DNA from: Rhodoferax sp.
Lineage (GTDB): Bacteria; Pseudomonadota; Gammaproteobacteria; Burkholderiales; Burkholderiaceae_C
Assembly (NCBI RefSeq): GCF_028689295.1
Contig: NZ_JAQTWL010000006.1
Location: 102,341-166,340 of the forward strand
Direction of reading: 5' to 3'
Length of the DNA stretch: 64,000 bases
The translations under genes were made by a program, and so were the position numbers. Numbering within the stretch: position 1 is the first letter of the stretch; each line of letters starts with the position of its first letter. The notes below the pieces were generated by a model. The model worked only from the letters and a program-made list of their open reading frames with translations. It searched no databases and was not told the origin of the DNA. Of this stretch, positions 43,063 through 63,920 are shown piece by piece.

Positions 43063-43118
43063 GACATTCTCCTTGAGTTGATGATGCTTCACTTTAGGCG
43101 CGCCCTGTGATGGGGCCC

Positions 43119-43882: not shown

Positions 43883-44326
43883 TCAGTTGGTCTTGAAGTC
43901 GTTGCCCACCAGTGGTTTGGCATCCACCTGTGGCACATGGCAACTGTCGCATTGCCAGTGCTGCATGTCGAGCTTGGGCTCGGCCTTGGCATCCGTGCCT
44001 GGAACCAGATGGGCTTTTGACACCATTGGCATTTTCTTGCCCTTGAAGTCGTCGCTGTTGTGGCAATCCCAACAGGCGTTTTCAGTCTGGCTGATGTTGT
44101 AGCCATCGACGCTGTGCGGTACCAGCGGCGGCTGGCCGGCAAAGCTGCGCTCGATCAACGCGAACTGTCCGGGGCGCTTGCCGGCGTAGGCTTTGACGTC
44201 GGGCGCGCTGTCGGCGCTGCTCACGCTGGTGTCGCGCAGCGTGCTGACCTGCACCGCGCTGCTGGCGCAGGCCACCACCGTCACGGCCAGCATGGCCAGC
44301 AGGGAAACTTTGAGGGTCTTCTTCAT
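43883..44326 (-). CDS. napB: Periplasmic nitrate reductase small subunit NapB
   Basis: A 147-residue diheme cytochrome with signal peptide and heme sites CWDCH and CDSCH. The NapB pattern PPLVPHSVDGYNIS...NACWDCH and the late MPMVSKAH are present. It passes electrons to NapA in the periplasm. The start of the signal (VVACASS) also resembles a lipobox, which would be unusual for NapB. It is last of the nap genes, 35 bp after napH. Confidence 0.92.
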   Translation of the reverse strand: MKKTLKVSLLAMLAVTVVACASSAVQVSTLRDTSVSSADSAPDVKAYAGKRPGQFALIERSFAGQPPLVPHSVDGYNISQTENACWDCHNSDDFKGKKMPMVSKAHLVPGTDAKAEPKLDMQHWQCDSCHVPQVDAKPLVGNDFKTN

Positions 44327-44361
44327 GATGGGGTCTCCACGGGTGAAATGATCGAATGAAA

Positions 44362-45255: not shown

Positions 45256-46073
45256 CGCGGCGCCTCATCCTGCAAGGGCGCAGGCGTGGCCGGTGCGGCG
45301 CTGCCCGGATCCCAGTGGCCGGGCAATTGCACGCCCTCGGGCAGGCGATCGGGCAGATCCACCAAATTGCGGTTTTCCACCAGCGACTTGCCGCCGGCCT
45401 TGCGCTTTTCTTCCCAGCCCAATTGGTAATGCGCGCCCAGTTCGCCCTTGGCCAGCTTGACCGGGTACACCTTGATGGCGGCCACTTCGAGCACGCACGA
45501 GGCCTCGCACTTGCCGCAGCCGGTGCAGGCCTCGGAATGCACGGTGGGCAAAAAGCGTGCGTGCTTGTCGGTGCGCGTGTTGTGCTGCAGTTCCAGCGTG
45601 ATGGCTTTGTCAATAGCCGGACAGACGCGGTAACACACGTCGCAGCGCAGGCCCAGAAAGTTCAGGCAGGTTTCATGGTCCACCAGCACCGCCAGGCCCA
45701 TCTTGGCTTTTTTGATGTCGGTCAGACTGTGGTCCAGCGCCCCGGTGGGGCAGGCCTTGACGCAGGGGATGTCTTCGCACATCTCGCAGGGTTTGGCGCG
45801 CGCCACAAAAAACGGCGTGCCGGTCGCCACCGGCATGTTCGGCGTTGCCAGTTTGAGGATGTCATACGGGCAGTCGCGCACGCACAGGCCGCAGCGGATG
45901 CAGGCGCCCTGAAAGTCGTCCTCCAGCCCGGCGCCCGGCGGCCTGATGGCGCCCGCTGGCAGAGCTTTGGCCTGTTTGCTCACCAGCCCCAAACCGAGGC
46001 CGATCGCGCCCACGCCACAGGCCATCTTGGCCGTGTCGAGCAGAAACTGGCGGCGTTCGGCAGAGAGAGCCAT
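45252..46073 (-). CDS. napG: Ferredoxin-type protein NapG
   Basis: A 273-residue iron-sulfur protein with a twin-arginine-type signal ([20 protein letters not shown]). It carries four [4Fe-4S] motifs: [26 protein letters not shown], the CDVCYRVCP set and [11 protein letters not shown]. It is periplasmic and works with NapH in quinol oxidation. It begins nine bases after napA and overlaps napH by four bases. Confidence 0.94.
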
Positions 46074-46082
46074 GGTGCAGCT

Positions 46083-48611
46083 TTAAGCCTTCACCACCTT
46101 GCAGGCGCACTTCTTGAAATCGGTCTCTTTCGAGATCGGGCAGGTGGCGTCGAGCGTGAGCTTGTTGACCAGGCGGTGCTCGTCGAAGAACGGCATGAAC
46201 ACCATGCCGGGCGGCATTTTGTTGCGACCACGGGTTTCCACCTTGGTCGTGAGCTCGCCGCGGCGGGTGCTCACCTTGATGTTGTCGCCGCGCTGCAGAC
46301 CGCGCTTTTTGGCATCGTCCGCATTCATGTACAACCAGGCATCGGGCATGGCGCGGTACAGCTCGGGCACGCGCCGGGTCATGCTGCCGGTGTGCCAGTG
46401 CTCCAGCACGCGGCCGGTGGAAAACCACAGGTCGAACTCGGCGTCGGGCGCTTCGGCAGCCGGTTGCCAGGGCAGGGCAAAAATCCAGGCCTTGCCGTCG
46501 GGCTTGCCGTAAAAGCGAATGCCTTCGCCTTTTTTCACATAGGGGTCATAACCCTCGCGGAAGCGCCACAGGGTTTCCTTCCGGTCCACCACCGGCCAGC
46601 GCAGGCCGCGCGCGTGGTGGTAACTCTCGAAGGGTGCCAGGTCATGCGCATGACCGCGGCCAAAGGCGGCGTACTCCTCGAACAGGCCCTTTTGCAGGTA
46701 GTAGCCCAGTTCCTTCGACTCGTCGTTGTCGAAGCCTTTCTGAATCTCTGCCAGCGGGAACTTGTTGACCTGGCCGTTGGCGTAGAGCACGTCGTACAGC
46801 GTCTTGCCCTTGAGCTCGGGCGCCTTCGCGATCAGGTCGGCGGGCCAGACCTCTTCGACCTTGAAGCGTTTGGAAAACTCCACGTATTGCCACAGGTCCG
46901 ACTTGGCCTGGCCCGGCGCGCGCACCTGCTGGCGCCAGAACTGGGTGCGGCGCTCGGCGTTGCCAAAGGCGCCTTCTTTCTCGCTCCACATGGCCGAGGG
47001 CAAAATCAGATCGGCCGCCATGGCCGACACCGTGGGATAGGCGTCAGACACCACGATGAAGTTGGCCGGGTTGCGAAAGCCGGGCCAGATTTCTTCATTG
47101 ATGTTCGGGCCCGCCTGCATGTTGTTGGTGGTGGTGGTCCAGTAGAAGTTGAGCTTGCCGTCCTTGAGCGCGCGGCTTTGCGCCACGGCGTGCAGGCCGA
47201 CCCAGTCGGGCACCGTGCCGGCGGGCAGCTTCCAGAGCTTTTCGGCAATCTCACGGTGTATGGGGTTGGTCACCTCCATGTCGGCGGGCAGGCGATGGGC
47301 AAAGGTGCCCACTTCGCGCGCCGTGCCGCAGGCCGAGGGCTGGCCGGTGAGCGAGAACGGGCCATTGCCGGGCTCCGATATTTTGCCCACCAGCAAATGC
47401 ACGTTGTAGATCATGTTGTTGACCCAGGTGCCGCGCGTGTGCTGGTTAAAGCCCATGGTCCAGGTCGATACCACCTTGATTTTCGGGTCGGCATAGGTCT
47501 TGGCCAGGGCTTCGAGCTTGTCCTTGGGCACGCCGGAAATCTGGTGCGCCTTGTCCAGCGTGTAGTCGCTCACAAACGCCTTGAACTCGTCAAACGTCAT
47601 CGGCGCGGAGGCGCCCGGGTTGCCCTTGGGTTTGCCGTCGGCACCGGGGTAACCGTTTTGCGTGGCTTTTTGTTCCAGCGGGTGGTTGGGGCGCAGGCCA
47701 TAACCGATGTCGGTCACGCCCTTGCGGAAGCTCACATTGGCTTTCACAAAGGCCTCGTTCACCGCGCCGTTCTGGATGATGTAGTTGCAGAGGTAATTCA
47801 AAATCGCCAGGTCGCTTTGCGGCTTGAAGATCAGCTCACTGTCGGCCAGCTCGCAGGAACGGTGGCTAAACGTGGACAGCACATTGAGCTTGACGTGCTT
47901 GGCCGTCAGGCGCCGGTCGGTGATGCGGCTCCACAAAATCGGGTGCATCTCGGCCATGTTGCTGCCCCACAGCACAAAGGCGTCGGCGTGCTCGAAGTCG
48001 TCGTAGCAGCCCATCGGCTCATCGATGCCGAAGGTGCGCATGAAGCCGGCCACCGCCGAGGCCATGCAGTGGCGCGCGTTGGGGTCGATGTTGTTGGAGC
48101 GAAAACCCGCCTTGAACAGCTTGGCTGCGGCATAGCCTTCCCAAATGGTCCACTGGCCCGAGCCGAACATGCCCACCGACCTGGGACCGCTGGCTTTGAG
48201 CGCACCCTTGCACTTTTCTTCCATGATGTCGAATGCCTGCTTCCAGCTGATGTGGGCAAACTCGCCGTTCTTGTCGAACTTGCCGTCTTTCATGCGCAAC
48301 AGCGGCTGCGTCAGGCGGTCCTTGCCGTACATGATCTTGCTCAGGAAGTAACCCTTGATGCAGTTGAGCCCCTTGTTGACCGGCGCATCCGGGTCGCCCT
48401 GGGTGGCCACGATGCGGTTGTCCTTGGTGCCTATCAGCACGCCGCAACCGGTGCCACAAAAACGGCAGACGCCCTTGTCCCAGCGCACGCCGTCCATGCT
48501 GGCCGGCGCAGCCTGCGCCAGCGCCTGCGCGCCGGGCACGCTGATGCCGATCACGGTGGCGGCCGCGGTGACGGCGTTGGCTTTGATCAATTCACGACGG
48601 GTTACTTGCAT
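46083..48611 (-). CDS. napA: Periplasmic nitrate reductase catalytic subunit NapA
   Basis: An 842-residue molybdopterin oxidoreductase. The twin-arginine signal is at R5-R6 ([14 protein letters not shown]). The [4Fe-4S] cluster cysteines are C49, C52, C56 and C84, and the molybdenum-coordinating cysteine is C182 in [11 protein letters not shown]-terminal bis-MGD binding regions are complete. It reduces nitrate to nitrite in the periplasm. Its start overlaps the napD stop by about ten bases. Confidence 0.96.
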
Positions 48612-48862
48612 GGCGATAACTCCTGCTCTGGGTTGGATTCGGTTTGTTGATAGACAAGCGCCATCGACAGCACGCCTTCGGCTCGCTCGATGGCTTCATA
48701 GGTTGCGGCGGCATTACGGTCGTCATCGGCCTCGATGCTGATGACCAGCTTGCCGTCTTCGGTGGCGGCATGCACCTCAACGCCGGCTTGTCTGGCCAGC
48801 CAGGCGCGCAACTCAGCCGCCTGCTCGGGGCGGCTATAGACGATGGCGCTGGAAATGTTCAT
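48602..48862 (-). CDS. napD: NapA signal-binding chaperone NapD
   Basis: An 86-residue protein using the ATG at 48862 ([19 protein letters not shown]), which has AAGGAC upstream. The longer form adds 16 residues not typical of the family. NapD has a ferredoxin-like fold and binds the NapA Tat signal peptide to time its export. The family segment [18 protein letters not shown] is clear. It heads the nap operon and is preceded by a TTGAT-type site. Confidence 0.9.
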
Positions 48863-48987
48863 GGAGTCCTTGCGATTCAATGCCAAGGGTTTTCCCTTGT
48901 TTGTGCGCAAGTCTAGGCTTTTCGGGCGGGCAGTAAATTGAACCAGTTCAAGATCTGAGGGCCTGATCAGCCAAATCCGGAGCTTGC

Positions 48988-49594: not shown

Positions 49595-50374
49595 TTAATT
49601 TGTCATCGCCGGGTGGCACCTTTTGCAGTCGGCCATGGGAAAGGCGACCGTGGTGTGGCACACGCCGCAAAACTCGCCCTGCAAATTGGCCGTCATGGAA
49701 AAGTGCTGGGTGGTCTTTTTCTTGATGTTGAAAATGTCGGGGTGGCAATTGCTGCAGTCCAGCAGCCAGGTATGCGGCCGGTGTGGGAAAACTGCGGGCG
49801 GCGTGCCGGTCCACTCCGACTCCAGCACCAGGATGTCTTTGAAAGCCATCTCGTTCACCGGTTTGATGGTCAGGTGCCGGGCCGGCACCGACAGACCCTT
49901 GTTCAGCGCCTTGCCCCAGTCGATCCTGTTGCCAAAACCAGCGGTAGGCAGTTTGGCCAGTTCGGCAAAACGCTCCTTGCCGGCCGACAAATTGCCGTTA
50001 TGGCATTTTTCGCAGGTGTCGATCTTGTGGCCAAACGCTGCCTTGCCGTCATGGCAACCGCTGGAGCCGCAAAACTGGCCGCTCTGGTTCGCCGCTTCGG
50101 TGATTTCGGTGGTGTTGACCTTCATGCCGAACTCCAGCTCGGAGTGGCAAATCCGGCAGGAGAACTTGCGCCGGTGAATCCAGTGTGAAAAAACCGCCGG
50201 CTTCACCGCGCTTTTGCCGGAGGTGCGATTGATCAGCAGGTTGCCGAACTCGTCGGGCGGTGGTGGTTTTGGCAGCTCCCAGAACTCGGCCGCCAGCAGG
50301 GGCAGCGAGACACACACCAACACGACCAGCAACAGCCTCTTGCCGTGCTGCAAAAACATTTGCCAAAACATCAC
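49595..50374 (-). CDS. Secreted multiheme cytochrome c (five CXXCH plus one CX4CH), c7-related
   Basis: A 259-residue secreted cytochrome with five canonical heme sites (CRICH, CEKCH, CSNCH, CGVCH, CKRCH) and one CGSSGCH (CX4CH) in place of the second site. It resembles two fused c7-type triheme units, with the pattern VFSHWIHRRKFSCRICHSEL...FGMKV at the front and FPHRPHTWLLDCSNCH at the back. It is paralogous to the gene at 51324-52145, where the second site is an ordinary CGTCH. It lies downstream of that paralog on the same strand, separated by a toxin-antitoxin pair and 245 bp (50375-50619) in which I see no gene. Likely a periplasmic or outer-surface electron carrier. Confidence 0.86.
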   Translation of the reverse strand: MMFWQMFLQHGKRLLLVVLVCVSLPLLAAEFWELPKPPPPDEFGNLLINRTSGKSAVKPAVFSHWIHRRKFSCRICHSELEFGMKVNTTEITEAANQSGQFCGSSGCHDGKAAFGHKIDTCEKCHNGNLSAGKERFAELAKLPTAGFGNRIDWGKALNKGLSVPARHLTIKPVNEMAFKDILVLESEWTGTPPAVFPHRPHTWLLDCSNCHPDIFNIKKKTTQHFSMTANLQGEFCGVCHTTVAFPMADCKRCHPAMTN

Positions 50375-51323: not shown

Positions 51324-52145
51324 CTACATCACCGGCTTCGAATGACAGTGCTCGCAATCGATCATCGGGAACGCCACCTTGCCGTGGCAGGCGCCGCAGT
51401 ATTTGCCGTCAAAATTCTCGTTCATCGAATAGGCCTGTTTGGCCTCTTTTTTCACTGACGGAAACAGGTCGGGGTGGCACAGTTCGCAGCCGTTCCACAC
51501 GCCGTGCTTGTCGTGTGAAAAGATGATGTCGGGCATGCCATAGGCGTGCGGCGAGATGGTGGCATCTGCCGGGCTCACAAAAGGCTTGCTTTTGCTCGAA
51601 ATCCCGTCCAGCCGGTCGATCAATGTCACCTGGCCTGCCGCCTCGGTGGCGATCCAGTCGATGCCGTTGCCAAAGCGTTGTTTGGGGAATTTGCCGGTGA
51701 ATTCGGCAAAGTCATTTTTCAGCTTCACCTCCTGGCCTGCGGCATGGCAGCGGCTGCAGCGCTGCGCCTCGGCCGGGTCTTTCACGCCCGCAGGAGCGGT
51801 CTTGGCCGGGCAGGCGGCAAAAATGCGCTCGCCAGCAAACGTCATCTTGCCGTTGTGGCAGGTGCCGCAGTAGTTGCCGCCGGCATTGTCAGCCGCGGTG
51901 ATGCCGGTTTCGTTGGCTTTCATGGCAAAGCCAATGTCCACGTGGCACAGCCTGCAGGTGTATTTGGAGCGGTGCAGCCAATGGTTAAAAGTGACTGGCG
52001 CCAGCCTGGCCTGGGCCGAATGGTTGCTGATGACCACCTTGCCGTATTCCTGCGGCGGCGGCCGTTTCTTTTTGACGCCACCCTGCGCCAGGGCCAGGCC
52101 CGCGGCAAGCAACACGGTCAAACAAATCACCAGCAGCTTCTTCAT
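51324..52145 (-). CDS. Secreted hexaheme cytochrome c, c7-related
   Basis: A 273-residue secreted cytochrome with signal peptide (MKKLLVICLTVLLAAGLALA) and six heme sites (CRLCH, CGTCH, CSRCH, CELCH, CGACH, CEHCH). They are arranged as two triheme units joined by a linker of about 90 residues. Features shared with c7-type triheme proteins are FNHWLHRSKYTCRLCH, GFAMKA..GIT and GNYCGTCHNGKMTF. It is paralogous to 49595-50374. It follows the small secreted gene 52157-52471 by 11 bp and likely shares its promoter, divergent from the NHL lipoprotein. A role moving electrons across the periplasm is inferred. Confidence 0.88.
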   Translation of the reverse strand: MKKLLVICLTVLLAAGLALAQGGVKKKRPPPQEYGKVVISNHSAQARLAPVTFNHWLHRSKYTCRLCHVDIGFAMKANETGITAADNAGGNYCGTCHNGKMTFAGERIFAACPAKTAPAGVKDPAEAQRCSRCHAAGQEVKLKNDFAEFTGKFPKQRFGNGIDWIATEAAGQVTLIDRLDGISSKSKPFVSPADATISPHAYGMPDIIFSHDKHGVWNGCELCHPDLFPSVKKEAKQAYSMNENFDGKYCGACHGKVAFPMIDCEHCHSKPVM

Positions 52146-52156
52146 GGCACATCACC

Positions 52157-52471
52157 TCATTTTTCGGGAATCACCTTGACCTCATTGACAAAAGACATGG
52201 TGGGGAAGCCCCGCAACAGGTCGTTGCTGTAAAAGTCCATCATCATGTAGCCCACATTGAAGCTGATGCGGTCGCCGGGCTTGACCTGGCCAACTACCTC
52301 CGAGGCCAGCCATTTGGTCTTGCCTTCGCCGGCGGCGGCGTCGGTGACTTCGATAAAGGTAAAGCTCAAGGTGGTGGCGGCGCTGACCACCTTGGCCTCG
52401 TCGGCCATCGCAGCCGACAGCAAGGCGGCAAACAGGGCGGCGCCACACAGCAGGCGCGAGGTCAATTTCAT
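52157..52471 (-). CDS. Small secreted protein of unknown function in the cytochrome island
   Basis: A 104-residue protein with a clear signal peptide (MKLTSRLLCGAALFAALLSAAMA) and a beta-rich mature region (TLSFTFIEVTD, KPGDRISFNVGYMMMDFYSN, GFPTMSFVNEVKVI). It has no heme motif. It heads the leftward unit with the hexaheme gene. The pattern hints at a small beta-barrel or OB-like fold. I do not recognise the family; a structural or metal-binding accessory role for the island is possible. Confidence 0.75.
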   Translation of the reverse strand: MKLTSRLLCGAALFAALLSAAMADEAKVVSAATTLSFTFIEVTDAAAGEGKTKWLASEVVGQVKPGDRISFNVGYMMMDFYSNDLLRGFPTMSFVNEVKVIPEK

Positions 52472-52642
52472 GGGGCTTCCAATCAGGCTGATTAATTCAG
52501 TAATGACGCAATGATACGACTGTCGGCTGGCGGCAGGGCAAACCGGCGGCGGTCAAGGCCTTTGCCCCGGCGGGTTGCGCCAGGCGCCGGCGCGCATGGA
52601 TAAAATGCACCCTTTCACTCTTTCAACCCTTTGGAAGTCAAC

Positions 52643-53860
52643 ATGACCACCATGCCTCAATTCATTGAATCTGATTCTGTAACGCAAGCTTTGCAGTCGC
52701 AGTCCTGGCGTCCGCAGCGCCCGTCGGGTGCCCGCCGGCTGGTTCATGCCCTGGCCGCCGTGGCGGTGGCCGGACTGGCGGCCGTGCTCGGCGGTTGCGC
52801 CAGCGATGCGCCCATCAAGGAGGCGCCGCCTCTGGTCTGGCCGGCGCCGCCCGAGACGGCGCGCATCAAGTTCCTGCGCACTCTGGTGGATGACAGCGAC
52901 CTGAACCAGGACACGACCGCCAGCCGCAAGGTGCTCAATTTTCTGGCTGGCGAGATGGCGGCCGCCAACCGCATCGTCGAGCCGATGGGCCTTGCGGTGT
53001 CTGACGACGGCCACCGCGTCTATGTGTCCGACTTTGCCCAGGGGGCGGTGTTCGTCTTTGACTTCGAGAAAAAAACCTCGCTCAAAATCGGCGCCCCGCG
53101 CGACCCGCTGGGCGGCCCCATGAGCGTGGCGCTGGACGGCGATGAAAACATTTACGTGGCGGAGGCGGCCGGCAAGGGCGTGCAGGTGTTCGACCGCACC
53201 GGCAAAAAGCTGCATTTCATCACCGACAAGTCGATCGAGCGGCCCATCGGCGTGGCGGTTGACAAGGCGCGCGGCAAGCTCTATGTGGCCGACACCGGGC
53301 GCGCCGAATCGTTCGAGCACACCATCAAGGTGTTTGACTTGCAGGGCAAGCTGCTGAGCAAGATCGGCAAGCAGATTGGCGACGTCGAAGGCTCCTTTTT
53401 GTTCCCCACCTGGATCACGCTGGATGCCCAGGGCAACCTGTATGTGTCTGACACGCTCAACTCGCGCATTCAAAAGTTCGACCCCGACGGCAAGTTCCTG
53501 CGGGTCTTTGGCAAACGCGGCAATTCCCCTGGCCAGTTCGACAAACCCAAGGGCCTGGGGGTGGACACTTTTGGCAACCTGTATGTGGTCGATGCCGGCT
53601 GGAGCAACGTGCAGATCTTCAATGCCAGGGGCGAGATGCTGATGTTTTTTGCCGGCCGCGGTGCCCTGCCGGGGTTTTTGCAAAACCCCACGTCGCTGGC
53701 CATCGACAAGCAGAACCGCATTTATGTGGGTGATTCGCTCAACCACCGGGTCAACGTTTATCAGCTGATCAACACCACCGCCGAAGACAGCGCCATCAAG
53801 GCCGCCGACGACGCCAAGGCGGCTGAAGCCGCCAAAACCGCAGAGCCGGCCAAGAAGTAA
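52643..53860 (+). CDS. NHL-repeat beta-propeller lipoprotein 1
   Basis: A 405-residue protein using the ATG at 52643 (GGAAG upstream). The hydrophobic segment ending in lipobox VLGGC puts the lipid cysteine at C52, after an unusually long N-region. At least six NHL-type blades follow, with repeated G-(N/R)-(L/I)-Y-V-(S/V/G)-D signatures such as GNLYVSDTLNSRIQKFDPDG and GNLYVVDAGWSNVQIF. The tail is rich in Ala and Lys. It shares the early motif LVWPAPPETARIKFLRTL with the second NHL protein at 58290-59342. In this setting it is likely an envelope scaffold for extracellular cytochromes. Confidence 0.88.
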   Translation: MTTMPQFIESDSVTQALQSQSWRPQRPSGARRLVHALAAVAVAGLAAVLGGCASDAPIKEAPPLVWPAPPETARIKFLRTLVDDSDLNQDTTASRKVLNFLAGEMAAANRIVEPMGLAVSDDGHRVYVSDFAQGAVFVFDFEKKTSLKIGAPRDPLGGPMSVALDGDENIYVAEAAGKGVQVFDRTGKKLHFITDKSIERPIGVAVDKARGKLYVADTGRAESFEHTIKVFDLQGKLLSKIGKQIGDVEGSFLFPTWITLDAQGNLYVSDTLNSRIQKFDPDGKFLRVFGKRGNSPGQFDKPKGLGVDTFGNLYVVDAGWSNVQIFNARGEMLMFFAGRGALPGFLQNPTSLAIDKQNRIYVGDSLNHRVNVYQLINTTAEDSAIKAADDAKAAEAAKTAEPAKK

Positions 53861-53883
53861 AACGCGCCAACGCCGCTCATCGG

Positions 53884-53917
53884 GGGCGCTGACTGCAAGG
53901 TCAGCGCCCTTTGTTTT
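53884..53917 (+). terminator. Rho-independent terminator after NHL lipoprotein 1
   Basis: A GGGCGCTGAC / GTCAGCGCCC stem with loop TGCAAG is followed by TTTGTTTT. The stem arms are identical to those of the terminator at 55065-55096, so the tetraheme gene between them is insulated on both sides. Confidence 0.9.
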
Positions 53918-54120
53918 GCAGGTTACCAAACCGTAACATCCACCTGTTTTCAGCCGTTAGCCGGTTACCAAAATGAAACCAATGCCACCCCATTTGCCCG
54001 CCCCAAAGGCTGCCAGGCCGTTCTTCCCCAGTGGCGGCGCAAGTTGGCCCGCCTTTTGCTTATACTGATCCGTCCGGGGTTGTTCCGGGACCTTCATTTC
54101 AAACCAAGGAGCATTTCGTC

Positions 54121-55032
54121 ATGAAAGTTTTAAAGAGTGCATTAGCCGTCAGCATGGTGCTGGCAACCATGGGTACCGCCATGGCATCCACCGGCGGTAC
54201 TGGTATCACCGGCACCCGTCACGATTACGCCACACGTACCAACTATCTGGGCTCGCAAACTGGCGGCCGTGCCGGCTTGGCCAATTCGGCTGGTCAGTGC
54301 ATGTATTGCCACACACCGCACAGTGCCACCACCACCAATCTGCTGTGGAACAAGGAACTGGGCAACACCAGCTACACCTGGGACATCTCCCTGACAGACG
54401 GCGGCACCACATTCGCTACTTTGGCAGCTGGCTACAAAGGCCCGTCAGTCAAGTGCCTGGCCTGCCATGACGGCGCCGTTGCCATTGGTGACGTTGCCCT
54501 GGCCCGTGGCAGCTTGAATGCCACGCTGAACAGCTTCAAGGTCGGCGACATTCCCACCAGCTACAGCACGACGATCAGCACTGCCACCTTCACCTCGACG
54601 GCTCAACGTCCGCAGTTCATCATCGGCTCTGCCGGCAGCCTGGCTGGTACCCACCCCATCGGCATGCCTTACCCGCTGGCTAATGCTGTTGGCACCTACA
54701 ACGGTGTGACCACCGGTGGCAGCGTGGTGCTCAACGAGTTCCAAGCCAACCCGCACCAGATCAGCTCCGGCAGCGCCGGCGGTGGTTTGGCTGTCAGCGC
54801 AAGCTACCCTGCTGCCAATGGCGCAGGCAACCAGGCCGCGCTGATCAAGCTGTACCAGGACAACGGCACCAACATCTCGGCCGGTACCTCGGCTGGCTTG
54901 ACCGGCATGGAATGCTCCACTTGCCACGATCCGCACAACAAGCAAACCGTGGACGACTGGATGCTGCGCGGCACCAACAACGGCTCCACCCAGGCCAGCG
55001 GTTACATCTGCCTGCAGTGCCACATCAAATAA
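54121..55032 (+). CDS. Secreted tetraheme cytochrome c, OmcE-like nanowire candidate
   Basis: A 303-residue secreted protein; the ATG at 54121 has AAGGAG upstream and begins a signal peptide (MKVLKSALAVSMVLATMGTA). Four heme sites are at C60-H64 (CMYCHTPH), C112-H116 (CLACHDG), C265-H269 (CSTCHDPH) and C297-H301 (CLQCH). Extra histidines (H34 in GTRHDY, H67, H178 in THPIG, H212, H272) could give bis-His ligation of all hemes. The N-terminal GITGTRHDY and CxxCHTPHxA patterns resemble OmcE-type filament cytochromes as I know them. The long Ser/Thr/Gly/Ala-rich middle suits a surface protein. It forms a single-gene unit between twin terminators. Nanowire assembly is inferred. Confidence 0.85.
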   Translation: MKVLKSALAVSMVLATMGTAMASTGGTGITGTRHDYATRTNYLGSQTGGRAGLANSAGQCMYCHTPHSATTTNLLWNKELGNTSYTWDISLTDGGTTFATLAAGYKGPSVKCLACHDGAVAIGDVALARGSLNATLNSFKVGDIPTSYSTTISTATFTSTAQRPQFIIGSAGSLAGTHPIGMPYPLANAVGTYNGVTTGGSVVLNEFQANPHQISSGSAGGGLAVSASYPAANGAGNQAALIKLYQDNGTNISAGTSAGLTGMECSTCHDPHNKQTVDDWMLRGTNNGSTQASGYICLQCHIK

Positions 55033-55064
55033 GCTAAGCCCAGCGCTTTCTTATCCCGCGCAAA

Positions 55065-55096
55065 GGGCGCTGACTTTCGGGTCAGCGCCCTTTTTT
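55065..55096 (+). terminator. Rho-independent terminator after the tetraheme gene
   Basis: A GGGCGCTGAC / GTCAGCGCCC stem with loop TTTCGG is followed by six T, 32 bases beyond the stop codon. It is the same stem as at 53884-53909 with a different loop. Confidence 0.92.
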
Positions 55097-55187
55097 CAGT
55101 CACGCAGTGGAACTCCCGGCATGCAATAGACTCGTAACTTGTACGGTTAAAATTTGGTAATGTGCAGCAGCAATATTGGTTGATCTG

Positions 55188-55835
55188 ATGGCTTTGAATG
55201 TCCCGAGATTTCGGCAGCACCTGGGCCGCATGCTGGCCTTGGCCCTGGTGCTGGTGCTGGTGCTGGCGGCCTGCAGCGCCTCCCCGCCGATGATGGCCAT
55301 GCTGTTCGACATGCCCCCGCCAAGCGAGCAGGTCTCCAACGAGCCGCCGCCGCGCCAGCCACGCCGCACCGTGCCCAAGCCGCAAGTGCTCATCATTTCC
55401 GCAGAATATGTGGCCATGGTGGAGGGCCTGCTCAAGACCGGCGCACCGCCCAACTGGCCCGACATCTTCAAGAAACTGCCCAAGGACGACGACGACAACA
55501 TCGACTGGTCTGCCGCGCTGGCGAGCAAGGCCATCAGCCCCAGCGGCATCATCAATGCCAGTGACACCGACGAGGGCAAAACCTCCGAAGACGACATCGA
55601 GCTGTCCACCTCGGGCAAACCGGCGCGCATGGTGATCTTCTCGCACAAGGTGCACACCCAGTGGCTCACCTGCACCAACTGCCACAACGCCATCTTCAAG
55701 CGCGAGGCCGGCGCCGCCACCATCACCATGGAGGCCATCGACGAGGGCAAGTACTGCGGTGTTTGCCACGACAAGGTGGCGCTGGCCCAGCCCTCGGGCT
55801 GCAAGGGCTGCCACAAGCCGATCAAAAAATCATGA
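55188..55835 (+). CDS. Triheme c7-type cytochrome lipoprotein
   Basis: A 215-residue protein; the ATG at 55188 is preferred over an in-frame TTG 12 bases upstream. A lipoprotein signal ends LVLVLAAC. A proline- and acid-rich linker (about 30-140, with PPPSEQVSNEPPPRQP) leads to a C-terminal triheme domain (CTNCH, CGVCH, CKGCH). That domain has the c7-type pattern VIFSHKVHTQWLTCTNCH, ITMEAIDEGKYCGVCH. It would hold a heme domain near a membrane surface on a flexible arm. It is the first gene of the five-gene operon; its stop overlaps the next start (ATGA at 55832-55835). Confidence 0.88.
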   Translation: MALNVPRFRQHLGRMLALALVLVLVLAACSASPPMMAMLFDMPPPSEQVSNEPPPRQPRRTVPKPQVLIISAEYVAMVEGLLKTGAPPNWPDIFKKLPKDDDDNIDWSAALASKAISPSGIINASDTDEGKTSEDDIELSTSGKPARMVIFSHKVHTQWLTCTNCHNAIFKREAGAATITMEAIDEGKYCGVCHDKVALAQPSGCKGCHKPIKKS

Positions 55836-56170
55836 AGGTCCTACTCTTGTGCAGACTCATGGCCGCTTGTCTGCTGCTGGCGCTGGCCGCGCCTGCGCTG
55901 GCGGCGCCGGTGCTGGGCGACATCACCTTCGAGCGCAAGACCAAGGGCGAGGAAGACTTTCCGCCGGCCATTTTTTCGCACTGGAATCACCGCGTCAAGT
56001 ACAAGTGTTATGTGTGTCACAACAAGAAAGTCGGCTTCGAGATGAAGGCCGGCAGCGCCAAAATCACCATGGCGCTGATCGATGAAAAAAAGTTCTGCGG
56101 CGTCTGCCACAAGGGACAGCCCGCCTTTGGCGTGGGCTTTGAGAGCTGCTCGCGCTGCCATCGCAAATGA
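55832..56170 (+). CDS. Periplasmic triheme c7-type cytochrome
   Basis: A 112-residue secreted protein with signal peptide (MKVLLLCRLMAACLLLALAA) and three heme sites (CYVCH, CGVCH, CSRCH). The c7-type pattern AIFSHWNHRVKYKCYVCH then ITMALIDEKKFCGVCHKGQP is present. It is the compact, unattached version of the domain in the preceding lipoprotein. It resembles the periplasmic triheme shuttles that link inner-membrane cytochromes to outer-membrane conduits in Geobacter. Four-base overlaps join it to both neighbours. Confidence 0.9.
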   Translation: MKVLLLCRLMAACLLLALAAPALAAPVLGDITFERKTKGEEDFPPAIFSHWNHRVKYKCYVCHNKKVGFEMKAGSAKITMALIDEKKFCGVCHKGQPAFGVGFESCSRCHRK

Positions 56171-58293
56171 GGTCTTTGCCCCCCTGGTCCATGCCCTTGT
56201 TGCTCGCCCTGGTGGCAGGCGCGGTGCCTGCCACCAGCGGGGCCGCCATCGACTGGAAGTTTGGCCGTGGCAAGTGGACCGGGGGCGTCGGGCTGCGCTA
56301 CGACCAGTCCAGCCAGTCCAGGGAATCTGACAGCAGCAGCCTGAGCACCTCGAGCCGGAACCTGCGCGAATGGTTTTACCTGCGGGGCAGCGGCCTTTAT
56401 GTGCTGGACCCGCGCCTGGTCAACGCCAGCCTGGGGCTGCAACTGGGCCTTAACCAGAACTCCTACAGCGGCTCGTATTCAGACAGCAGCGCCGCCGACC
56501 AGGCGATCGGCTACAACCTGGATGCCAGCATTCTGGAGCAAAAGCCCTACCCCATGCAGCTTTATGCCAACCGCAGCCAGACCGAGGCCAACCAGGACTT
56601 CGGCGCGCGCACCGAGGGCACTTTTGAAAACGTCGGTTTCAGCCTGAGGCTCAAGGAAGACAGCTTTCTGCAAAACTGGGGCGGCCCGTGGCTGAGCGCC
56701 GACCTGCGCGTGCGCCAGGAGCGCCGCCACGACACCACCACCTATTTTGAGCGTGTCAGCCAGCGCGACCAGAGCCAGAGCACGGTCGAAGTGTCTGCCG
56801 ACAAAGGCTTTACCACGGCCGACCTCAGGTTTCGCTACCTGGCCAACGAGCTGAGCAACGCGGAGCAGCCGAGCAACCGGTCGCAGAGCGCCAACCTGTT
56901 TTATACCCAGGACTTCGGCCCCGGACTGAACCGCAATTTTGGCTCCAGCCTGTCGTATTCAACGCACAGCGGGCTGCTGCCCAGCAACACGCTGGCGGCC
57001 ACCGGGACCCTGCACATCGCGCATTTGACCAACCTGTCCACCGACTACAGCTACATCTTCAGCAATGAAGAGATCGAGGGCGTGAGCACGACGCAGCACA
57101 GCGGCAGCTTCTCCTTGTCGCATCGTCTGTATGAAAACCTCATGACGTCCGTGGCGCTGAGCGGCAACCAGATCACCCTGCCGGTTGGCACGCTGACCAA
57201 TTACAGCGGCCAACTCAGCCAGAGCTACCAGCACAGCCTGCCCGGCGGCGGCGGCTTGAGCATGAACTGGTCGGGCGGCTACCAGCGCGACGTCAATGCG
57301 CTGAGTGTCGGCGTGGTCAATTTCTTTGAGCAGGTCGAGGCGACCGCGCTGGACCAGGTTTTTAAGCTGAGCAAGACTTTTGTGATCGAAAGCAGCATCA
57401 GGGTGTTCAACGTGCAGGACGCGCTGGATATTCGTGAGCTTGCGCTTGGCACCGATTACACCGTGGAGCGGGTCGGCAATGATGTTTACATCACGCTGAT
57501 CCAGGACCCGCTGTCACCCGATCCGCCGGTTGCGCTCGGCGACAAGCTCCGGGTGACCTATGATTTCGAGCTGGACCCCAGCCTCGAGTACGAGACCCTG
57601 AACGCAGGTTATGGTGTGGCGGTGGACTACGGCTGGATCGGGGCGACCTACCAGCACCAGCAGTCGGAAAGAACCCCGCTGGTTGGTGAAGCCCGCTTTT
57701 TGAACAGCACCAGCAGCGACAGTTTTGGTCTCAGCTTGCGCGGCGGCTGGCGCGGTCTGCAGACAACGGCCAGGGCCAACCATGTGCGCAGCATCAGGAC
57801 CGATGTTGCGGGCCAGACGCAAGAGGACACCACCCGCCTGTCGCTGCAAGGCAGCGGGCGCATGTATGAGATGGATGCGCTCGGCAACGCAAGTCTTGAT
57901 CGCTACCGCGCGCCGCTGCAGGCTTATGACCGGGCCCAGGTCACGGCGTCACTGCGTTGGCGGCCTGCCAATAACTGGGACATGGCGTTCAGCGCCGATG
58001 CCATCAAGGTGCGCTACCAGATGCCCGACAGCCAGACCACAACGCTCACGGCCCGCAGCTCGATCAACTGGCGCACGTCTGGCGGCTGGAACAACACCGC
58101 CTTTGTGGGTGTCGCCAACAGCACCGGCAGCGGGGGCGGCAACACCTCGGTGTTGCAGGTGGGCGCGCGCACACGCTGGGGCTGGGGCCAACTGGCGCTT
58201 TCTTCGGGCGTGACTTTCGACTACCTGACCACCGGCGGCACGCAGTCCGCCAGCCAGCGCTTCGACATTGCCATCACGAGGTCATTTCGATGA
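56167..58293 (+). CDS. Large outer-membrane beta-barrel (porin-like) of the electron-transfer operon
   Basis: A 708-residue protein with signal peptide and no cysteine. The mature chain is a succession of alternating polar/aromatic strands (for example REWFYLRGSGLYVLDPRLVN, WLSADLRVRQERRHDTTTYF) and ends RFDIAITRSFR, typical of an outer-membrane beta-barrel. Its length is near that of MtrB/PioB-type conduit porins, but the N-terminal CXXC of MtrB is missing, so it may be a separate porin family. Placed between a triheme c7 gene and genes for a surface beta-propeller and a large cytochrome, it probably sheathes a heme wire across the outer membrane. Start overlaps the previous stop (ATGA). Confidence 0.82.
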   Translation: MRSLPPWSMPLLLALVAGAVPATSGAAIDWKFGRGKWTGGVGLRYDQSSQSRESDSSSLSTSSRNLREWFYLRGSGLYVLDPRLVNASLGLQLGLNQNSYSGSYSDSSAADQAIGYNLDASILEQKPYPMQLYANRSQTEANQDFGARTEGTFENVGFSLRLKEDSFLQNWGGPWLSADLRVRQERRHDTTTYFERVSQRDQSQSTVEVSADKGFTTADLRFRYLANELSNAEQPSNRSQSANLFYTQDFGPGLNRNFGSSLSYSTHSGLLPSNTLAATGTLHIAHLTNLSTDYSYIFSNEEIEGVSTTQHSGSFSLSHRLYENLMTSVALSGNQITLPVGTLTNYSGQLSQSYQHSLPGGGGLSMNWSGGYQRDVNALSVGVVNFFEQVEATALDQVFKLSKTFVIESSIRVFNVQDALDIRELALGTDYTVERVGNDVYITLIQDPLSPDPPVALGDKLRVTYDFELDPSLEYETLNAGYGVAVDYGWIGATYQHQQSERTPLVGEARFLNSTSSDSFGLSLRGGWRGLQTTARANHVRSIRTDVAGQTQEDTTRLSLQGSGRMYEMDALGNASLDRYRAPLQAYDRAQVTASLRWRPANNWDMAFSADAIKVRYQMPDSQTTTLTARSSINWRTSGGWNNTAFVGVANSTGSGGGNTSVLQVGARTRWGWGQLALSSGVTFDYLTTGGTQSASQRFDIAITRSFR

Positions 58294-59342
58294 GCCACGC
58301 TTTCAAGAGCTGGCTGGTGGCCTTGTCGTTGCTGCTGCTGGCCGGCGGCTGCAGCAGCCCGCCGCCAGCGCCCGCCCTGGACCCCGCCGCCCTGGCCGCC
58401 CTGGTCTGGCCCAAGCCGCCCGAGCCGCCGCGCATCAAATACCTGCAAAGCGTGGCCGGGCCGCAGGACTGGGGTGTCGAGCTGCCCTGGTGGCGGCGCC
58501 TGGCCGATGCCCTGACCGGCGCCGCCGCGCGGCAGTTTGTGCGGCCGTCTGCGGCGGCCGAGGCCGCTGGCGTGCTCTATGTGGCCGACCCCGGATCTCA
58601 GTCGCTGTGGCTGCTGGACCGGCCGCGCAAGCAGGCCAGCCAGATCACCACAATTGAAGGCGAGGCGCTGGTGTCGCCGGTGGCGCTGGCGCTGCGCGCG
58701 GATGGCGCCGTGTTTGTGGCCGACACCGCGCTCAACAAGGTGTTTTTGCTGGGCCGCGACGGCGCGCTGCTGCGCACCTTTGCCAGCCCGGAGCTGGAGC
58801 GCCCGGCGGGTGTGGCCTGGAGTGAGGCCGCACAACAGCTCTATGTGCTCGACTCCAGGCGCCACCGCATCACCGTGTTCGACGGCAATGGCACGGTGCT
58901 GCGCCATTTGGGCGACAGCGGCCGTGGCAACGGCCAGTTCAACTTTCCCACCCATATGGCGCTGGCGGCAGATGGCGCGCTGGTGGTCACCGACGCGCTG
59001 AACTTTCGCATTCAGGCGCTCGGCCCGAACGGCGATTTCTTGTGGAAGTTTGGCCACAATGGCAACGGCAGCGGCGACTTTGCCGCGCCCAAGGGCGTGG
59101 CGGTGGACGCCGGGGGCCACTACTATGTGGTCGATGCGCTGTTTGATGCGGTGCAGATCTTTGACCAGAGCGGCCAGTTGCTGCTCGCCTTTGGCGAACG
59201 CGGCGAGCAGCCGGGCCAGCTGACACTGCCGCGCGGCATATTTATTTCCAAAGAAGACAAGGTCTATGTGGCCGATGCCTACAACCAGCGGGTACAGGTG
59301 TTTCTGGGCGCCATTGCGACGCAAAAGGAGCAAGCAAAATGA
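58290..59342 (+). CDS. NHL-repeat beta-propeller lipoprotein 2
   Basis: A 350-residue lipoprotein with lipobox LLAGGC and six NHL-type blades (for example GVLYVADPGSQSLWLLDRP, GALVVTDALNFRIQALGPNG, DKVYVADAYNQRVQVF). It shares LVWPKPPEPPRIKYLQSV near its N-terminus with NHL lipoprotein 1, which suggests a common anchor or interaction segment. It has four-base overlaps with the barrel gene and the following cytochrome gene. It likely sits at the outer membrane as a scaffold for cytochrome secretion or docking. Confidence 0.88.
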   Translation: MSHAFKSWLVALSLLLLAGGCSSPPPAPALDPAALAALVWPKPPEPPRIKYLQSVAGPQDWGVELPWWRRLADALTGAAARQFVRPSAAAEAAGVLYVADPGSQSLWLLDRPRKQASQITTIEGEALVSPVALALRADGAVFVADTALNKVFLLGRDGALLRTFASPELERPAGVAWSEAAQQLYVLDSRRHRITVFDGNGTVLRHLGDSGRGNGQFNFPTHMALAADGALVVTDALNFRIQALGPNGDFLWKFGHNGNGSGDFAAPKGVAVDAGGHYYVVDALFDAVQIFDQSGQLLLAFGERGEQPGQLTLPRGIFISKEDKVYVADAYNQRVQVFLGAIATQKEQAK

Positions 59343-61096
59343 ACGCCAAATTTGACTGGAATCGCCTGCGGGCCGGGCTGCTGGGGCTGTTGCTGGCAGG
59401 GGTGGCCGGCTTGTACCCGGTCCAGGTCATGAGTGGCATTGCCAATACCAGGCACAACCTCACGCCATCGGGCCCGGGTACCGTCAAGGTGCCAGAGACC
59501 GAGCCCGCCGGCACCTGCGTGTTTTGCCACACGCCGCACAACGCCAGCCCGGCAAGGTCGCTGTGGAACCGGACGCTGTCAGCCGCCACCTACACCCTTT
59601 ACACCAGCTCCACGCTCAAGGCCGTGCCGACGCAGCCCACCGGCAGTTCGCGCCTGTGCCTGTCGTGCCACGACGGCACGCTGGCCATGGGCACGCTGCT
59701 GCGTTCACCTGGCGGCGTGCAGTTCACGCTGGACAAGCTCACCGGTGCTGGCGTGCTTGGCACCGATTTGTCCAATGACCACCCGATATCCTTCACCTAC
59801 AACAGCCAGTTGGCGACAGACCGCGGCGAACTGGTGGACCCCATCGGGGCGCCCAGCACCCTGCATCTGGACGTGAGCGGCCAAGTGCAGTGCACCAGTT
59901 GCCACGACGCGCATGTGGAGCGCGCCAAGTTCATGCGCTTTGACCCGGTCAAGGGCGCGCTGTGCACCACCTGCCACCGGCCCACGGGCTGGCCCAGCGT
60001 CACCCCTAACCCGCTCCAGGGCCACGCCAGTTCTACCGCTGAGTTTCGCGGCACCGAGACCGACACCAACCCCTGGCCCAGCGGCGGCTACACCACGGTG
60101 GAAGACAACGCCTGCCTGAACTGCCACCGCTCCCACGCGGCCGGCCATGGCAAGGGGCTGCTGGCGCAAACCGGCGAGGCGGCCAATTGCACCGTGTGCC
60201 ATAGCGGCTTGGTGGCCAACACCAACTTCAATTTAAGCGCCGAATTCACCAAAACCTCGCGCCATACGATCGACATCGACCCCTGGACCCACGAGCCCAA
60301 GGAAGATGCGAGTCTGATGCCCCGCCATGTCAGTTGCGCCGACTGCCACAACCCCCACGCGGCCGATGCCAGCACCGCCACGGTGCCCAATGTCACCGGG
60401 CCATTAAAGGGCGTGCGCGGCATCAACCAGGCTGGCAGCCCGGTGGCGGCGGCCACTTTTCAGCAGGAGGTTTGCTACAAGTGCCACGGCCTGAGCCAGG
60501 CCACCACCACCAGCATCACGCGCCAGGACAACGAGCGCAATGTGCGGCTGGAGTTCGACCCGGCCAACGCGTCTTATCATCCGGTGGCGGCAGCGGGGAA
60601 AAACCTGACCATCCCCAATAACAGCTTCGTGGCGGGCTCGGGCCTGACGTACCTGAGCCGGATTGGCTGCGGCAGTTGCCATAACAACGATGGCTGGACG
60701 GCGGGTGGCACCAATCCAGCCGGTCCGCACGGCTCCAACTATGCGCCGCTGCTGGAGCGCAACTACAACAGCGCCAGTACCGTGATCGAGTCGGCCACTG
60801 AATTTGCGATGTGCTACAAATGCCACGACCAAAACGATTTGCTGACCACGACCGTGCCCGGCAAATTCCCGCATGCGAAACACCTGAGCACCAGCGTCAG
60901 CCCGACTTCATGCGCCACCTGCCACGATGCGCATGGCTCACGCACGCAGACCCGCCTGATCAATTTCGTGACGTTTGATGTCGGCGGCATTGCGGTGGTG
61001 ACGCAGTCGGGCGGCAACCCCATTACCTTCAACCCGGCGGCCAAAAGCTGCACGCTGATGTGCCACGGCAACGATCACAACCCCAAGACCTATTGA
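59339..61096 (+). CDS. Large secreted multiheme cytochrome c (11 CXXCH plus one CX3CH)
   Basis: A 585-residue secreted cytochrome. Eleven canonical heme motifs (CVFCH, CLSCH, CTSCH, CTTCH, CLNCH, CTVCH, CADCH, CYKCH, CGSCH, CYKCH, CATCH) are followed by a final CTLMCH (CX3CH). The first quarter (SGIANTRHNL, CVFCHTPHNA, SRLCLSCHDG, NDHPISF) resembles the tetraheme protein at 54121-55032. Several sites read CHxxH or CHDAH. The N-terminal hydrophobic signal is preceded by basic residues (MNAKFDWNRLRAGLLGLLLA). It ends the five-gene operon and is a candidate outer-surface terminal reductase or filament subunit. Confidence 0.88.
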   Translation: MNAKFDWNRLRAGLLGLLLAGVAGLYPVQVMSGIANTRHNLTPSGPGTVKVPETEPAGTCVFCHTPHNASPARSLWNRTLSAATYTLYTSSTLKAVPTQPTGSSRLCLSCHDGTLAMGTLLRSPGGVQFTLDKLTGAGVLGTDLSNDHPISFTYNSQLATDRGELVDPIGAPSTLHLDVSGQVQCTSCHDAHVERAKFMRFDPVKGALCTTCHRPTGWPSVTPNPLQGHASSTAEFRGTETDTNPWPSGGYTTVEDNACLNCHRSHAAGHGKGLLAQTGEAANCTVCHSGLVANTNFNLSAEFTKTSRHTIDIDPWTHEPKEDASLMPRHVSCADCHNPHAADASTATVPNVTGPLKGVRGINQAGSPVAAATFQQEVCYKCHGLSQATTTSITRQDNERNVRLEFDPANASYHPVAAAGKNLTIPNNSFVAGSGLTYLSRIGCGSCHNNDGWTAGGTNPAGPHGSNYAPLLERNYNSASTVIESATEFAMCYKCHDQNDLLTTTVPGKFPHAKHLSTSVSPTSCATCHDAHGSRTQTRLINFVTFDVGGIAVVTQSGGNPITFNPAAKSCTLMCHGNDHNPKTY

Positions 61097-61137: not shown

Positions 61138-61372
61138 GTTGTCATTGCGAACGTAGCTCCGTCATTGCGCACGCCCCTTCGTCATTGCGAACGAAGTGAA
61201 GCAATCCATGCCTCCAATCTGCATGGGCTGCCGCGCTACGCTCGCAGTGACGGGGACGTCATTGCGAACGAAGTGAAGCAATCCATGAATTCCGGACTGC
61301 ATGGATTGCCGCGCTACGCTCGCAATGACAGCATTTATACATGGACTGCCGCGTTACGCTCGCAATGACAGC
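61138..61372. repeat. Cluster of REP-like palindromic repeats 3' of the electron-transfer operon
   Basis: The gap 61097-61390 carries no gene. It holds at least two complete palindromic units, built of CATTGCGAACGAAGTGAAGC and CGCGCTACGCTCGCAATGAC arms, plus several half units. They are the same family as at 41.4 and 49.0 kb. They may protect the 3' end of the long operon mRNA; no classical terminator is visible here. Confidence 0.88.
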
Positions 61373-61390
61373 CTTTGTGAATGGCCTGCG

Positions 61391-61675
61391 CTACAGCAAA
61401 CCCGGATACAAATCGTCCCACAACGGATTCATCCCTTCGATCAACGCCATTTTTTTCGCGCGTGACCCGGCTTTGAGTTGTTTCTCTCGACTTATCGCAT
61501 TCACCATGCTTGCATGCAATTCAAAATAGACCAGTGTGTGCACGGCATATTGCTTGGTAAATCCATCAACCAGATTGTTCTTGTGCTGCCAGACTCGCTT
61601 GATCAGGTCGGATGTCACGCCCACATAGAGCGTGCCCCGGAGTTGACTGGCCAGGATGTAGATGGCGGGCTGCAT
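61391..61675 (-). CDS. GIY-YIG nuclease family protein
   Basis: A 94-residue single-domain protein using the ATG at 61675. The GIY-YIG signature appears as AIYILAS...GTLYVGVTSDLIKRVWQHKN, followed by LVYFELHASMVNAISREKQL with the catalytic glutamate. Such stand-alone domains are small endonucleases of unknown cellular role. It sits between two dense clusters of REP-like repeats. The open frame continues upstream through the repeats, but that part is repeat-derived and not family-like. Confidence 0.86.
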   Translation of the reverse strand: MQPAIYILASQLRGTLYVGVTSDLIKRVWQHKNNLVDGFTKQYAVHTLVYFELHASMVNAISREKQLKAGSRAKKMALIEGMNPLWDDLYPGLL

Positions 61676-61961
61676 GGGCTTGGTGTGGTTGGTGATTTTC
61701 TGAAATGTAATGCACAAAACCAAAGTCATGGATTGCTTCACTTCGTTCGCAATGACGGGAGTGTGTTCGTAATGACGGGGCTGTGTTCGCAATGACGGGG
61801 CTGTGTTCGCAATGACGGGGCTGTTTTCGTAATGGCCACGCTGCGCTCGTGGTGAGGAGGTTGCGCTCGTAATGACGAGGCCGGTTGTCACTGCAATGAC
61901 TACAGGATTGTCATTGCGAGCGTAGCGTGGCAATCCATGTATTCGGAATTCATGGATTGCT

Positions 61962-63920
<1,959 letters not shown>

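What the first reader, a model, noticed from the sequence alone, without database searches (positions are those of the whole stretch)
55188..61096. Five-gene, translationally coupled porin-cytochrome-propeller operon: candidate new extracellular electron conduit
Seen: triheme lipoprotein, triheme c7, 708-residue beta-barrel, NHL beta-propeller lipoprotein and an 11-12 heme secreted cytochrome are joined by ATGA overlaps at 55832-55835, 56167-56170, 58290-58293 and 59339-59342. Such coupling implies fixed stoichiometry. Known: MtrCAB, PioAB and Geobacter porin-cytochrome complexes pair a barrel with multiheme cytochromes. Inference: this is a conduit of different make-up, since the barrel lacks the MtrB CXXC and the partners are c7-type trihemes plus an NHL protein. 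I am not aware of a described betaproteobacterial system with this exact order.
Basis: partly seen in the sequence, partly recalled or inferred. Interest (0 to 1): 0.92.

Follow-up and report, generated by a model that had tools for sequence, protein, structure and literature searches.

The report
Electron conduit with a nanowire-family tip
This gene cluster, from a likely Rhodoferax bacterium, is predicted to form a Uet-type electron wire through the outer membrane; the likely outermost cytochrome has a relative of the Geobacter nanowire protein OmcE built into one end, and a second OmcE relative is encoded next door, so the wire may serve as a socket for nanowires.

Summary
In detail: five genes joined by four ATGA overlaps encode two triheme c7 proteins, a 708-aa barrel, an NHL propeller and an 11-CXXCH cytochrome that also has a conserved CX3CH. 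The barrel-NHL-undecaheme core recurs across many phyla.

Not seen in the passages I read: residues 17-214 of the undecaheme protein align with nearly all of the nanowire subunit OmcE (7tfs, E 1e-24), and the tetraheme gene just upstream (54121-55032) is also OmcE family (single sequence E 1e-11, profile E 1e-36). These are the only two OmcE-family places found in the genome. In the genus a free tetraheme occurs in 14 of 16 genomes with an undecaheme match and 2 of 73 without (strictly 12 of 14 and 4 of 75).

Likely mechanism: a conduit whose tip may dock an OmcE-type filament; polymerisation is untested.

The parts
52631..53860 (+). NHL beta-propeller protein with a lipobox-like LGGC (first NHL protein, UetH/I-like); true start may be the ATG at 52643
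   Evidence: PF01436 E 1e-26; in the loci, an NHL gene lies within 1 kb of 34 of 41 OmcE-pattern tetraheme ORFs, window included
53882..53911 (+). terminator-like hairpin after the first NHL gene
   Evidence: 13-pair stem; 53875-53925 folds at -26.4 kcal/mol, z -4.35
54121..55032 (+). secreted tetraheme cytochrome of the OmcE family (UetA-like)
   Evidence: 7tfs_A E 1.3e-11 by single sequence, E 1.2e-36 by profile A3; 4 CXXCH plus H34, H67, H178, H272, invariant or at least 90% conserved in 26 rows
55062..55093 (+). terminator-like hairpin followed by T, between the tetraheme gene and the five-gene operon
   Evidence: 55058-55100 folds at -25.3 kcal/mol, z -6.56; not listed by the consensus scan
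55188..55835 (+). triheme c7 protein with lipobox, periplasmic-side 'slot' cytochrome (UetD/E/G-like)
   Evidence: PF14522 E 8e-14, TIGR04257 E 3e-19
55269..55322 (+). post-lipobox motif ACSASPPMMAMLFDMPPP, counterpart of C...FFDGVPPP in relatives
   Evidence: pattern in 38 of 58 slot loci and 2 of 208 other ORFs with 3 or more CXXCH (pattern set after seeing the sequences)
55832..56170 (+). secreted triheme c7 cytochrome
   Evidence: PF14522 E 6e-15, TIGR04257 E 2e-18
56167..58293 (+). predicted outer-membrane beta-barrel (UetC-like), no cysteine
58290..59342 (+). NHL beta-propeller protein with lipobox, coupled to the undecaheme gene
   Evidence: PF01436 E 2e-23; gap to the undecaheme gene exactly -4 in 37 of 73 barrel loci
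59339..61096 (+). secreted cytochrome with 11 CXXCH and 1 CX3CH (UetJ-like)
   Evidence: 6119 proteins at E 1e-3 or better among 7998 candidates scored
59387..59980 (+). OmcE-family tetraheme module inside the undecaheme protein (residues 17-214)
   Evidence: 7tfs_A E 1.1e-24, 9yuq_N E 3.3e-24; 77 of 81 homologous ORFs fit the module pattern; 80 modules form one group in the tree, support 99/91
61049..61066 (+). twelfth heme-type motif, CX3CH (CTLMCH)
   Evidence: invariant in the 37-row alignment; CX3CH near the end of 77 of 81 ORFs

Best explanation
This is a Uet-type gene set predicted to build an electron conduit through the outer membrane, and its likely surface-exposed cytochrome (UetJ) has an OmcE-family nanowire module at its N-terminus, which likely passes electrons to or from the OmcE-family tetraheme protein encoded next door. 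Steps: (1) inferred: triheme c7 proteins on the periplasmic side, one a predicted lipoprotein, hand electrons to or from hemes at or inside the barrel; (2) predicted: the barrel (30 long strands in the model) sheathes the crossing, perhaps helped by the short motif of the slot lipoprotein; (3) inferred: the NHL propeller is the assembly or clamp partner of the cytochrome encoded directly after it; (4) shown by sequence: UetJ joins an OmcE-type four-heme module to a C-terminal part with eight heme motifs; (5) inferred: the C-terminal part sits on the barrel and the OmcE module faces outward, where it would dock or seed UetA, as a filament or as single subunits. The direction of flow (metal reduction or electron uptake) is open.
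For: Published Uet part list. Core order: of 73 barrel loci, window included, an NHL gene starts within 25 bp of the barrel's end, or overlaps it, in 61; an undecaheme gene follows the next NHL gene in 71, exactly -4 apart in 37. MtrB is the top structural match to the barrel. OmcE homology of UetA and of UetJ residues 17-214, each with four CXXCH and four further conserved His. Only these two OmcE-family places in the own genome at E 0.001. Co-occurrence in the genus: free tetraheme in 14 of 16 genomes with an undecaheme match and 2 of 73 without (Fisher p 2e-12); counting only near-full-length undecaheme matches, 12 of 14 and 4 of 75 (p 6e-10); places. Of 51 loci with at least 7.5 kb before UetJ, 44 hold a tetraheme ORF ending within 16 residues of its last heme motif, 33 by the strict OmcE pattern, anywhere in the locus on either strand.
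Against: No filament, expression or localisation data. AlphaFold2 of UetJ failed (pLDDT 38), so its C-terminal part and the module's orientation are unknown. The window's UetA lies in a mostly proteobacterial group apart from OmcE. Two of 14 genus genomes with near-full-length UetJ lack a free tetraheme; 18 of 51 long-enough loci lack one by the strict pattern, 7 by the loose one. No PPIase gene was seen in the cluster. TM to MtrB is low (0.35-0.37) and other barrels come close in Z. 15 of 73 barrel loci show no slot cytochrome in range and 20 of the other 58 lack the motif. One of 8 loci without a barrel hit (L074) had room for it. Within the genus the system is patchy: UetJ matches in 16 of 89, barrel profile in 9 of 89. 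The physiological role of cytochrome filaments is itself contested (PMC11077965, abstract start in the listing).
Confidence: 0.62

Rival explanations
1. A Uet conduit in which the OmcE-type module is only a shared four-heme building block: UetA stays monomeric and acts as a surface shuttle or terminal oxidoreductase, and no filament or docking exists.
For: No polymerisation evidence; the window's UetA falls outside the group that holds OmcE; some UetJ genomes and loci lack the free tetraheme.
Against: Four CXXCH and four further His positions of the OmcE pattern are kept in both UetA and UetJ, and the two co-occur strongly in the genus. Both solved relatives match over nearly the whole module.
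Confidence: 0.33
2. A conduit mainly for electron uptake (Fe(II) or electrode oxidation), as proposed for Tenderia and Gallionella, here perhaps feeding the nitrate reductase encoded in the same window. This concerns direction and does not exclude the best explanation.
For: Uet is reported from cathode- and iron-oxidising groups; a nap gene set lies at about 43.9-48.9 kb (NapB; NapD and molybdopterin and Fe-S subunits).
Against: The same window holds a NapC/NirT tetraheme and a nine-heme plus cytochrome b protein, which could equally export electrons; direction cannot be read from sequence.
Confidence: 0.45
3. The barrel is a solute or siderophore channel and the cytochromes only happen to sit next to it.
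For: TonB-dependent receptors are the next structural matches.
Against: MtrB ranks first in both comparisons, over residues 39-705; no Pfam domain in the barrel; the barrel sits with NHL and undecaheme genes in 71 of 73 barrel loci.
Confidence: 0.03

Closest known systems
Uet (undecaheme electron transfer) complex, uetABCDEFGHIJ, of Tenderiales; also reported in Gallionella, and UetJ with porin in Leptothrix-group genomes
   Same: Tetraheme, barrel, triheme c7 proteins, NHL proteins and an undecaheme cytochrome clustered together (passages)
   Different: In the window two trihemes are in the operon, no PPIase gene was seen, one NHL gene precedes the tetraheme and the other follows the barrel. 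The Tenderiales paper itself was not held and no Tenderia sequence was compared
OmcE cytochrome nanowire of Geobacter sulfurreducens (7tfs) and the 16-chain entry 9yuq
   Same: UetA and UetJ residues 17-214 are homologs over nearly the whole chain with the same heme and His pattern
   Different: UetJ carries eight further heme motifs; UetA polymerisation is untested; UetA of the window is not in OmcE's group
MtrCAB, MtoAB, PioAB
   Same: Large barrel plus multiheme cytochromes; MtrB is the best structural match
   Different: No detected sequence match to MtrB_PioB, no cysteine in the barrel, 30 long model strands (26 in MtrB, from memory), no decaheme in the operon
Geobacter porin-cytochrome (OmbB, Ext) clusters
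   Same: Barrel with periplasmic and surface multiheme partners (recalled)
   Different: Not compared by sequence; no reference sequences were at hand

Membership tests
Uet complex | undecaheme secreted cytochrome (UetJ) | tested here: met
   11 CXXCH plus CX3CH; the published cluster lists 11 and 12 motifs
Uet complex | beta-barrel, triheme c7 proteins, NHL proteins and a tetraheme clustered with it | tested here: met
Uet complex | PPIase (UetB) in the cluster | tested here: not met
   the genes between 52.6 and 61.1 kb are the two NHL proteins, the tetraheme and the other four operon genes; none is a PPIase by Pfam. The rest of the genome was not searched. The published set varies too: UetC hits in four of six Gallionella genomes
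Uet complex | TPR gene among the trihemes (Tel_16525 in Tenderia; its label UetF is my inference) | tested here: inconclusive
   none inside 52.6-61.1 kb; a 146-aa TPR protein lies at 40934-41374 and a TPR glycosyltransferase-41 protein at 61962-63920; relation to Tel_16525 not tested
Uet complex | sequence homology to Tenderia UetC and UetJ | not tested
   no Tenderia sequence reached; one search listed 120 of 4963 matches, none named Tenderia
OmcE-type cytochrome nanowires | homology over the tetraheme subunit, 4 CXXCH and four further His | tested here: met
OmcE-type cytochrome nanowires | polymerisation with inter-subunit heme ligation | not testable with these tools
   needs cryo-EM; a passage of PMC12203936 describes this for OmcE
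MtrAB/PioAB | MtrB_PioB barrel sequence family | tested here: not met
   0 of 36 barrel homologs match it at E 0.1; no PF11854 match in the genome
MtrAB/PioAB | MtrB-like barrel fold | tested here: inconclusive

The most novel reading that the evidence does not exclude
UetJ is the missing socket between outer-membrane conduits and cytochrome nanowires: its C-terminal eight-heme part caps a 30-strand barrel, while its N-terminal OmcE-type module acts as the first, cell-bound subunit of a UetA (OmcE-type) filament. Bacteria of many phyla would plug interchangeable 3- to 27-heme lipoproteins, through one shared FFDGVPPP-type motif, into the periplasmic side of the same barrel, making a standard two-sided connector for extracellular electron exchange.
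Probability: 0.3. Interest if true: 0.9.

Novelty: new member of a known kind. Interest (0 to 1): 0.62.

Why it matters
How cytochrome nanowires are wired to the cell is debated; one published view charges OmcS directly from periplasmic PpcA-E (PMC10954620, passages). A widespread conduit whose likely surface cytochrome carries an OmcE-family module, with a free OmcE-family subunit encoded beside it, offers a concrete and testable link. It makes the N-terminus of UetJ, the motif of the slot lipoprotein and the NHL partner specific targets.

Tried and rejected
Single-sequence barrel searches in plasmids, genome contigs and 299 family genomes (only the own genome matched), and a profile scan of viral contigs, found no relatives; this first looked like a rare gene, but the protein search and profiles showed it to be widespread. 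A solute channel was considered and set aside. The first motif pattern was strict (25 of 73 loci, 1 of 208 other ORFs); the relaxed one was set after seeing the sequences, so its Fisher p (7e-29) is post hoc. In one search, OmcE-like tetrahemes in range of the barrel were left out of both sets. Reaching a named Tenderia protein through the third protein search failed. The consensus promoter scan found nothing above chance. Literature: ten searches; in the listings and passages I saw, none links UetA or UetJ to OmcE. One passage reports a locus in Geoalkalibacter with MtoA-like cytochromes, an OmcE homolog and two NHL proteins (PMC12016550), so OmcE-NHL neighbours as such are in print. The library lacks most subscription papers and the Tenderiales paper itself, so I do not claim the OmcE link is unpublished.
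Full report

THE NEIGHBOURHOOD. Directly upstream lie another NHL protein with a lipobox-like motif (52631-53860) and a tetraheme cytochrome (54121-55032), each followed by a strong terminator-like hairpin (53882-53911, 55062-55093). The five-gene operon thus looks like a unit separate from the tetraheme gene; this is prediction only. On the minus strand are two more c7-type proteins (49595-50374, 51324-52145).

WHAT IT IS. A Gallionellaceae paper (PMC10734462, passages) describes the Uet complex of Tenderiales: undecaheme UetJ, extracellular tetraheme UetA, three trihemes UetDEG, PPIase UetB, NHL proteins UetHI and barrel UetC, in six Gallionella genomes with UetC hits in four. A review names the cluster uetABCDEFGHIJ (PMC12575090, passage). 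UetJ and its porin are reported from Leptothrix-group genomes (PMC13386937, passages), and an undecaheme cytochrome of Ca. Dechloromonas occultata is cited in PMC13264449 (passage). In Tenderia the undecaheme gene is Tel_16545, and the trihemes Tel_16515, 16520 and 16530 are among its most highly expressed genes (PMC5371394, passages). The Tenderiales paper was not held. The window's set is a Uet member by part list; no PPIase was seen in the cluster, and the TPR question is open.

CONSERVATION. The undecaheme protein has 6119 homologs among the 7998 candidates scored. From 473 relatives in one-genome-per-species contigs the best 80 were fetched, labelled beta-, gamma- and deltaproteobacteria, Nitrospinae, Omnitrophota, Myxococcota, Verrucomicrobia, Planctomycetota and others. 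Of these 80 plus the window (L001, a copy of the window, left out), 73 hold the barrel; of the 8 without, 7 have under 2 kb before the undecaheme gene and one (L074) has 10 kb. In 61 of 73 the NHL gene starts within 25 bp of the barrel's end or overlaps it; in 1 it is 199 bp away, in 9 more than 1 kb on, in 2 none was found downstream. An undecaheme gene follows the next NHL gene in 71 of 73, overlapping by exactly 4 bases in 37. ORF starts were taken as far upstream as possible, so larger overlaps are upper bounds. In the genus (89 genomes with the own; likely Rhodoferax, since G326 carries two copies at nearly the coordinates of the Rhodoferax sp. Kmv23 contigs L003 and L004), an undecaheme match occurs in 16 and the barrel profile in 9: patchy. 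Two of the 16 (G343, G352) match only over part of the profile, in longer frames.

VARIABLE SLOT. The cytochrome just upstream of the barrel ranges from 3 to 27 CXXCH and over c7 and paired-CXXCH types. Many begin with a lipobox cysteine and a motif like FFDGVPPP. Of 73 barrel loci 15 have no such cytochrome in range; of the other 58, 38 carry the motif, against 2 of 208 other ORFs with three or more CXXCH. The pattern was tuned on these sequences; the stricter first one gave 25 of 73 against 1 of 208. The window's version is ACSASPPMMAMLFDMPPP. I infer a docking peptide.

THE NANOWIRE LINK. The tetraheme protein matches OmcE (7tfs_A) at E 1.3e-11 alone and E 1.2e-36 as a 26-row profile; the 16-chain entry 9yuq matches at 1.5e-31. 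Residues 17-214 of the undecaheme protein align with residues 9-231 of the 232-residue OmcE chain (E 1.1e-24) and with 9yuq (3.3e-24). Both keep four CXXCH and four further histidines. OmcE and OmcS filaments use a histidine of the neighbouring subunit to ligate one heme (PMC12203936 and PMC12954529, passages). In the own genome these two are the only OmcE-family places at E 0.001. From the places listed I counted a free tetraheme in 14 of 16 genomes with an undecaheme match and in 2 of 73 without (Fisher p 2e-12); with near-full-length undecaheme matches only, 12 of 14 and 4 of 75 (p 6e-10). The genomes are related, so p is indicative. Of 51 loci with at least 7.5 kb before UetJ, 44 hold a tetraheme ORF ending within 16 residues of its last heme motif and 33 one that fits the strict OmcE pattern. 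Of 41 strict tetrahemes, 34 have an NHL gene within 1 kb, so each OmcE-type protein tends to have an NHL partner.

TREE. In a tree of 123 modules (80 UetJ, 41 tetrahemes, 2 references) the UetJ modules form one supported group (99/91). The tetrahemes split in two: 18, mostly from other phyla, group weakly with OmcE and 9yuq (86/74); 23, mostly proteobacterial and including the window's, stand apart on a long supported branch (100/99; root by midpoint only). So the window's tetraheme is OmcE family, not shown to be an OmcE ortholog. Fifteen of 56 tetraheme ORFs failed the pattern and were left out of the tree.

HOW IT LIKELY WORKS. Inferred: periplasmic trihemes feed or drain hemes in the barrel; the eight-motif C-terminal part of UetJ sits on the barrel; its OmcE module points outward and contacts UetA. 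Whether UetA polymerises is untested, and the physiological role of cytochrome filaments is contested (PMC11077965, listing). Direction is open; a NapC/NirT tetraheme, a nine-heme plus cytochrome b protein and a nap gene set lie in the same window.

VERDICT. A conserved, Uet-type conduit: a known kind. The surprising part is the OmcE module at its likely tip.

Noticed in passing
38936-40924 +: 662-aa protein with nine CXXCH and a C-terminal cytochrome b561-like membrane domain (PF01292 E 2e-7); resembles, from memory, the CbcL type of inner-membrane quinone oxidoreductase.
   Followed up: partly
27309-27896 +: NapC/NirT-family tetraheme (PF03264 E 1.6e-60), a CymA-like candidate for passing electrons between the quinone pool and the periplasm.
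   Followed up: partly
43883-48910 -: Periplasmic nitrate reductase gene set: NapB, NapD, a molybdopterin oxidoreductase and two Fe-S proteins, beside an octaheme cytochrome at 41572-43092.
   Followed up: partly
49595-50374 - and 51324-52145 -: Two further c7-type proteins with 5 and 6 CXXCH (the first also has a CX4CH) on the other strand; not in the published Uet list that I saw.
   Followed up: partly
52157-52471 -: 104-aa protein with no family match, also found near the cluster in L006 and L019.
   Followed up: no
61138-61990: Dense short repeats right after the operon, such as three copies of CGTCATTGCGAACGAAGTGAAGCAATCCATG (two exact) and 20-base tandem units, with inverted copies.
   Followed up: partly
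61962-63920 -: TPR protein with SEC-C motif and glycosyltransferase family 41 domain next to the cluster, opposite strand.
   Followed up: partly
53882-53911 and 55062-55093: The two hairpins share nearly the same stem sequence (GGGCGCTGAC/GTCAGCGCCC).
   Followed up: partly
L045, L053, L065, L067: Relatives with NHL-barrel-unknown protein (363-403 aa)-NHL-undecaheme order and no CXXCH cytochrome directly before the barrel; the unknown protein was not identified (one scan failed on wrong coordinates).
   Followed up: no
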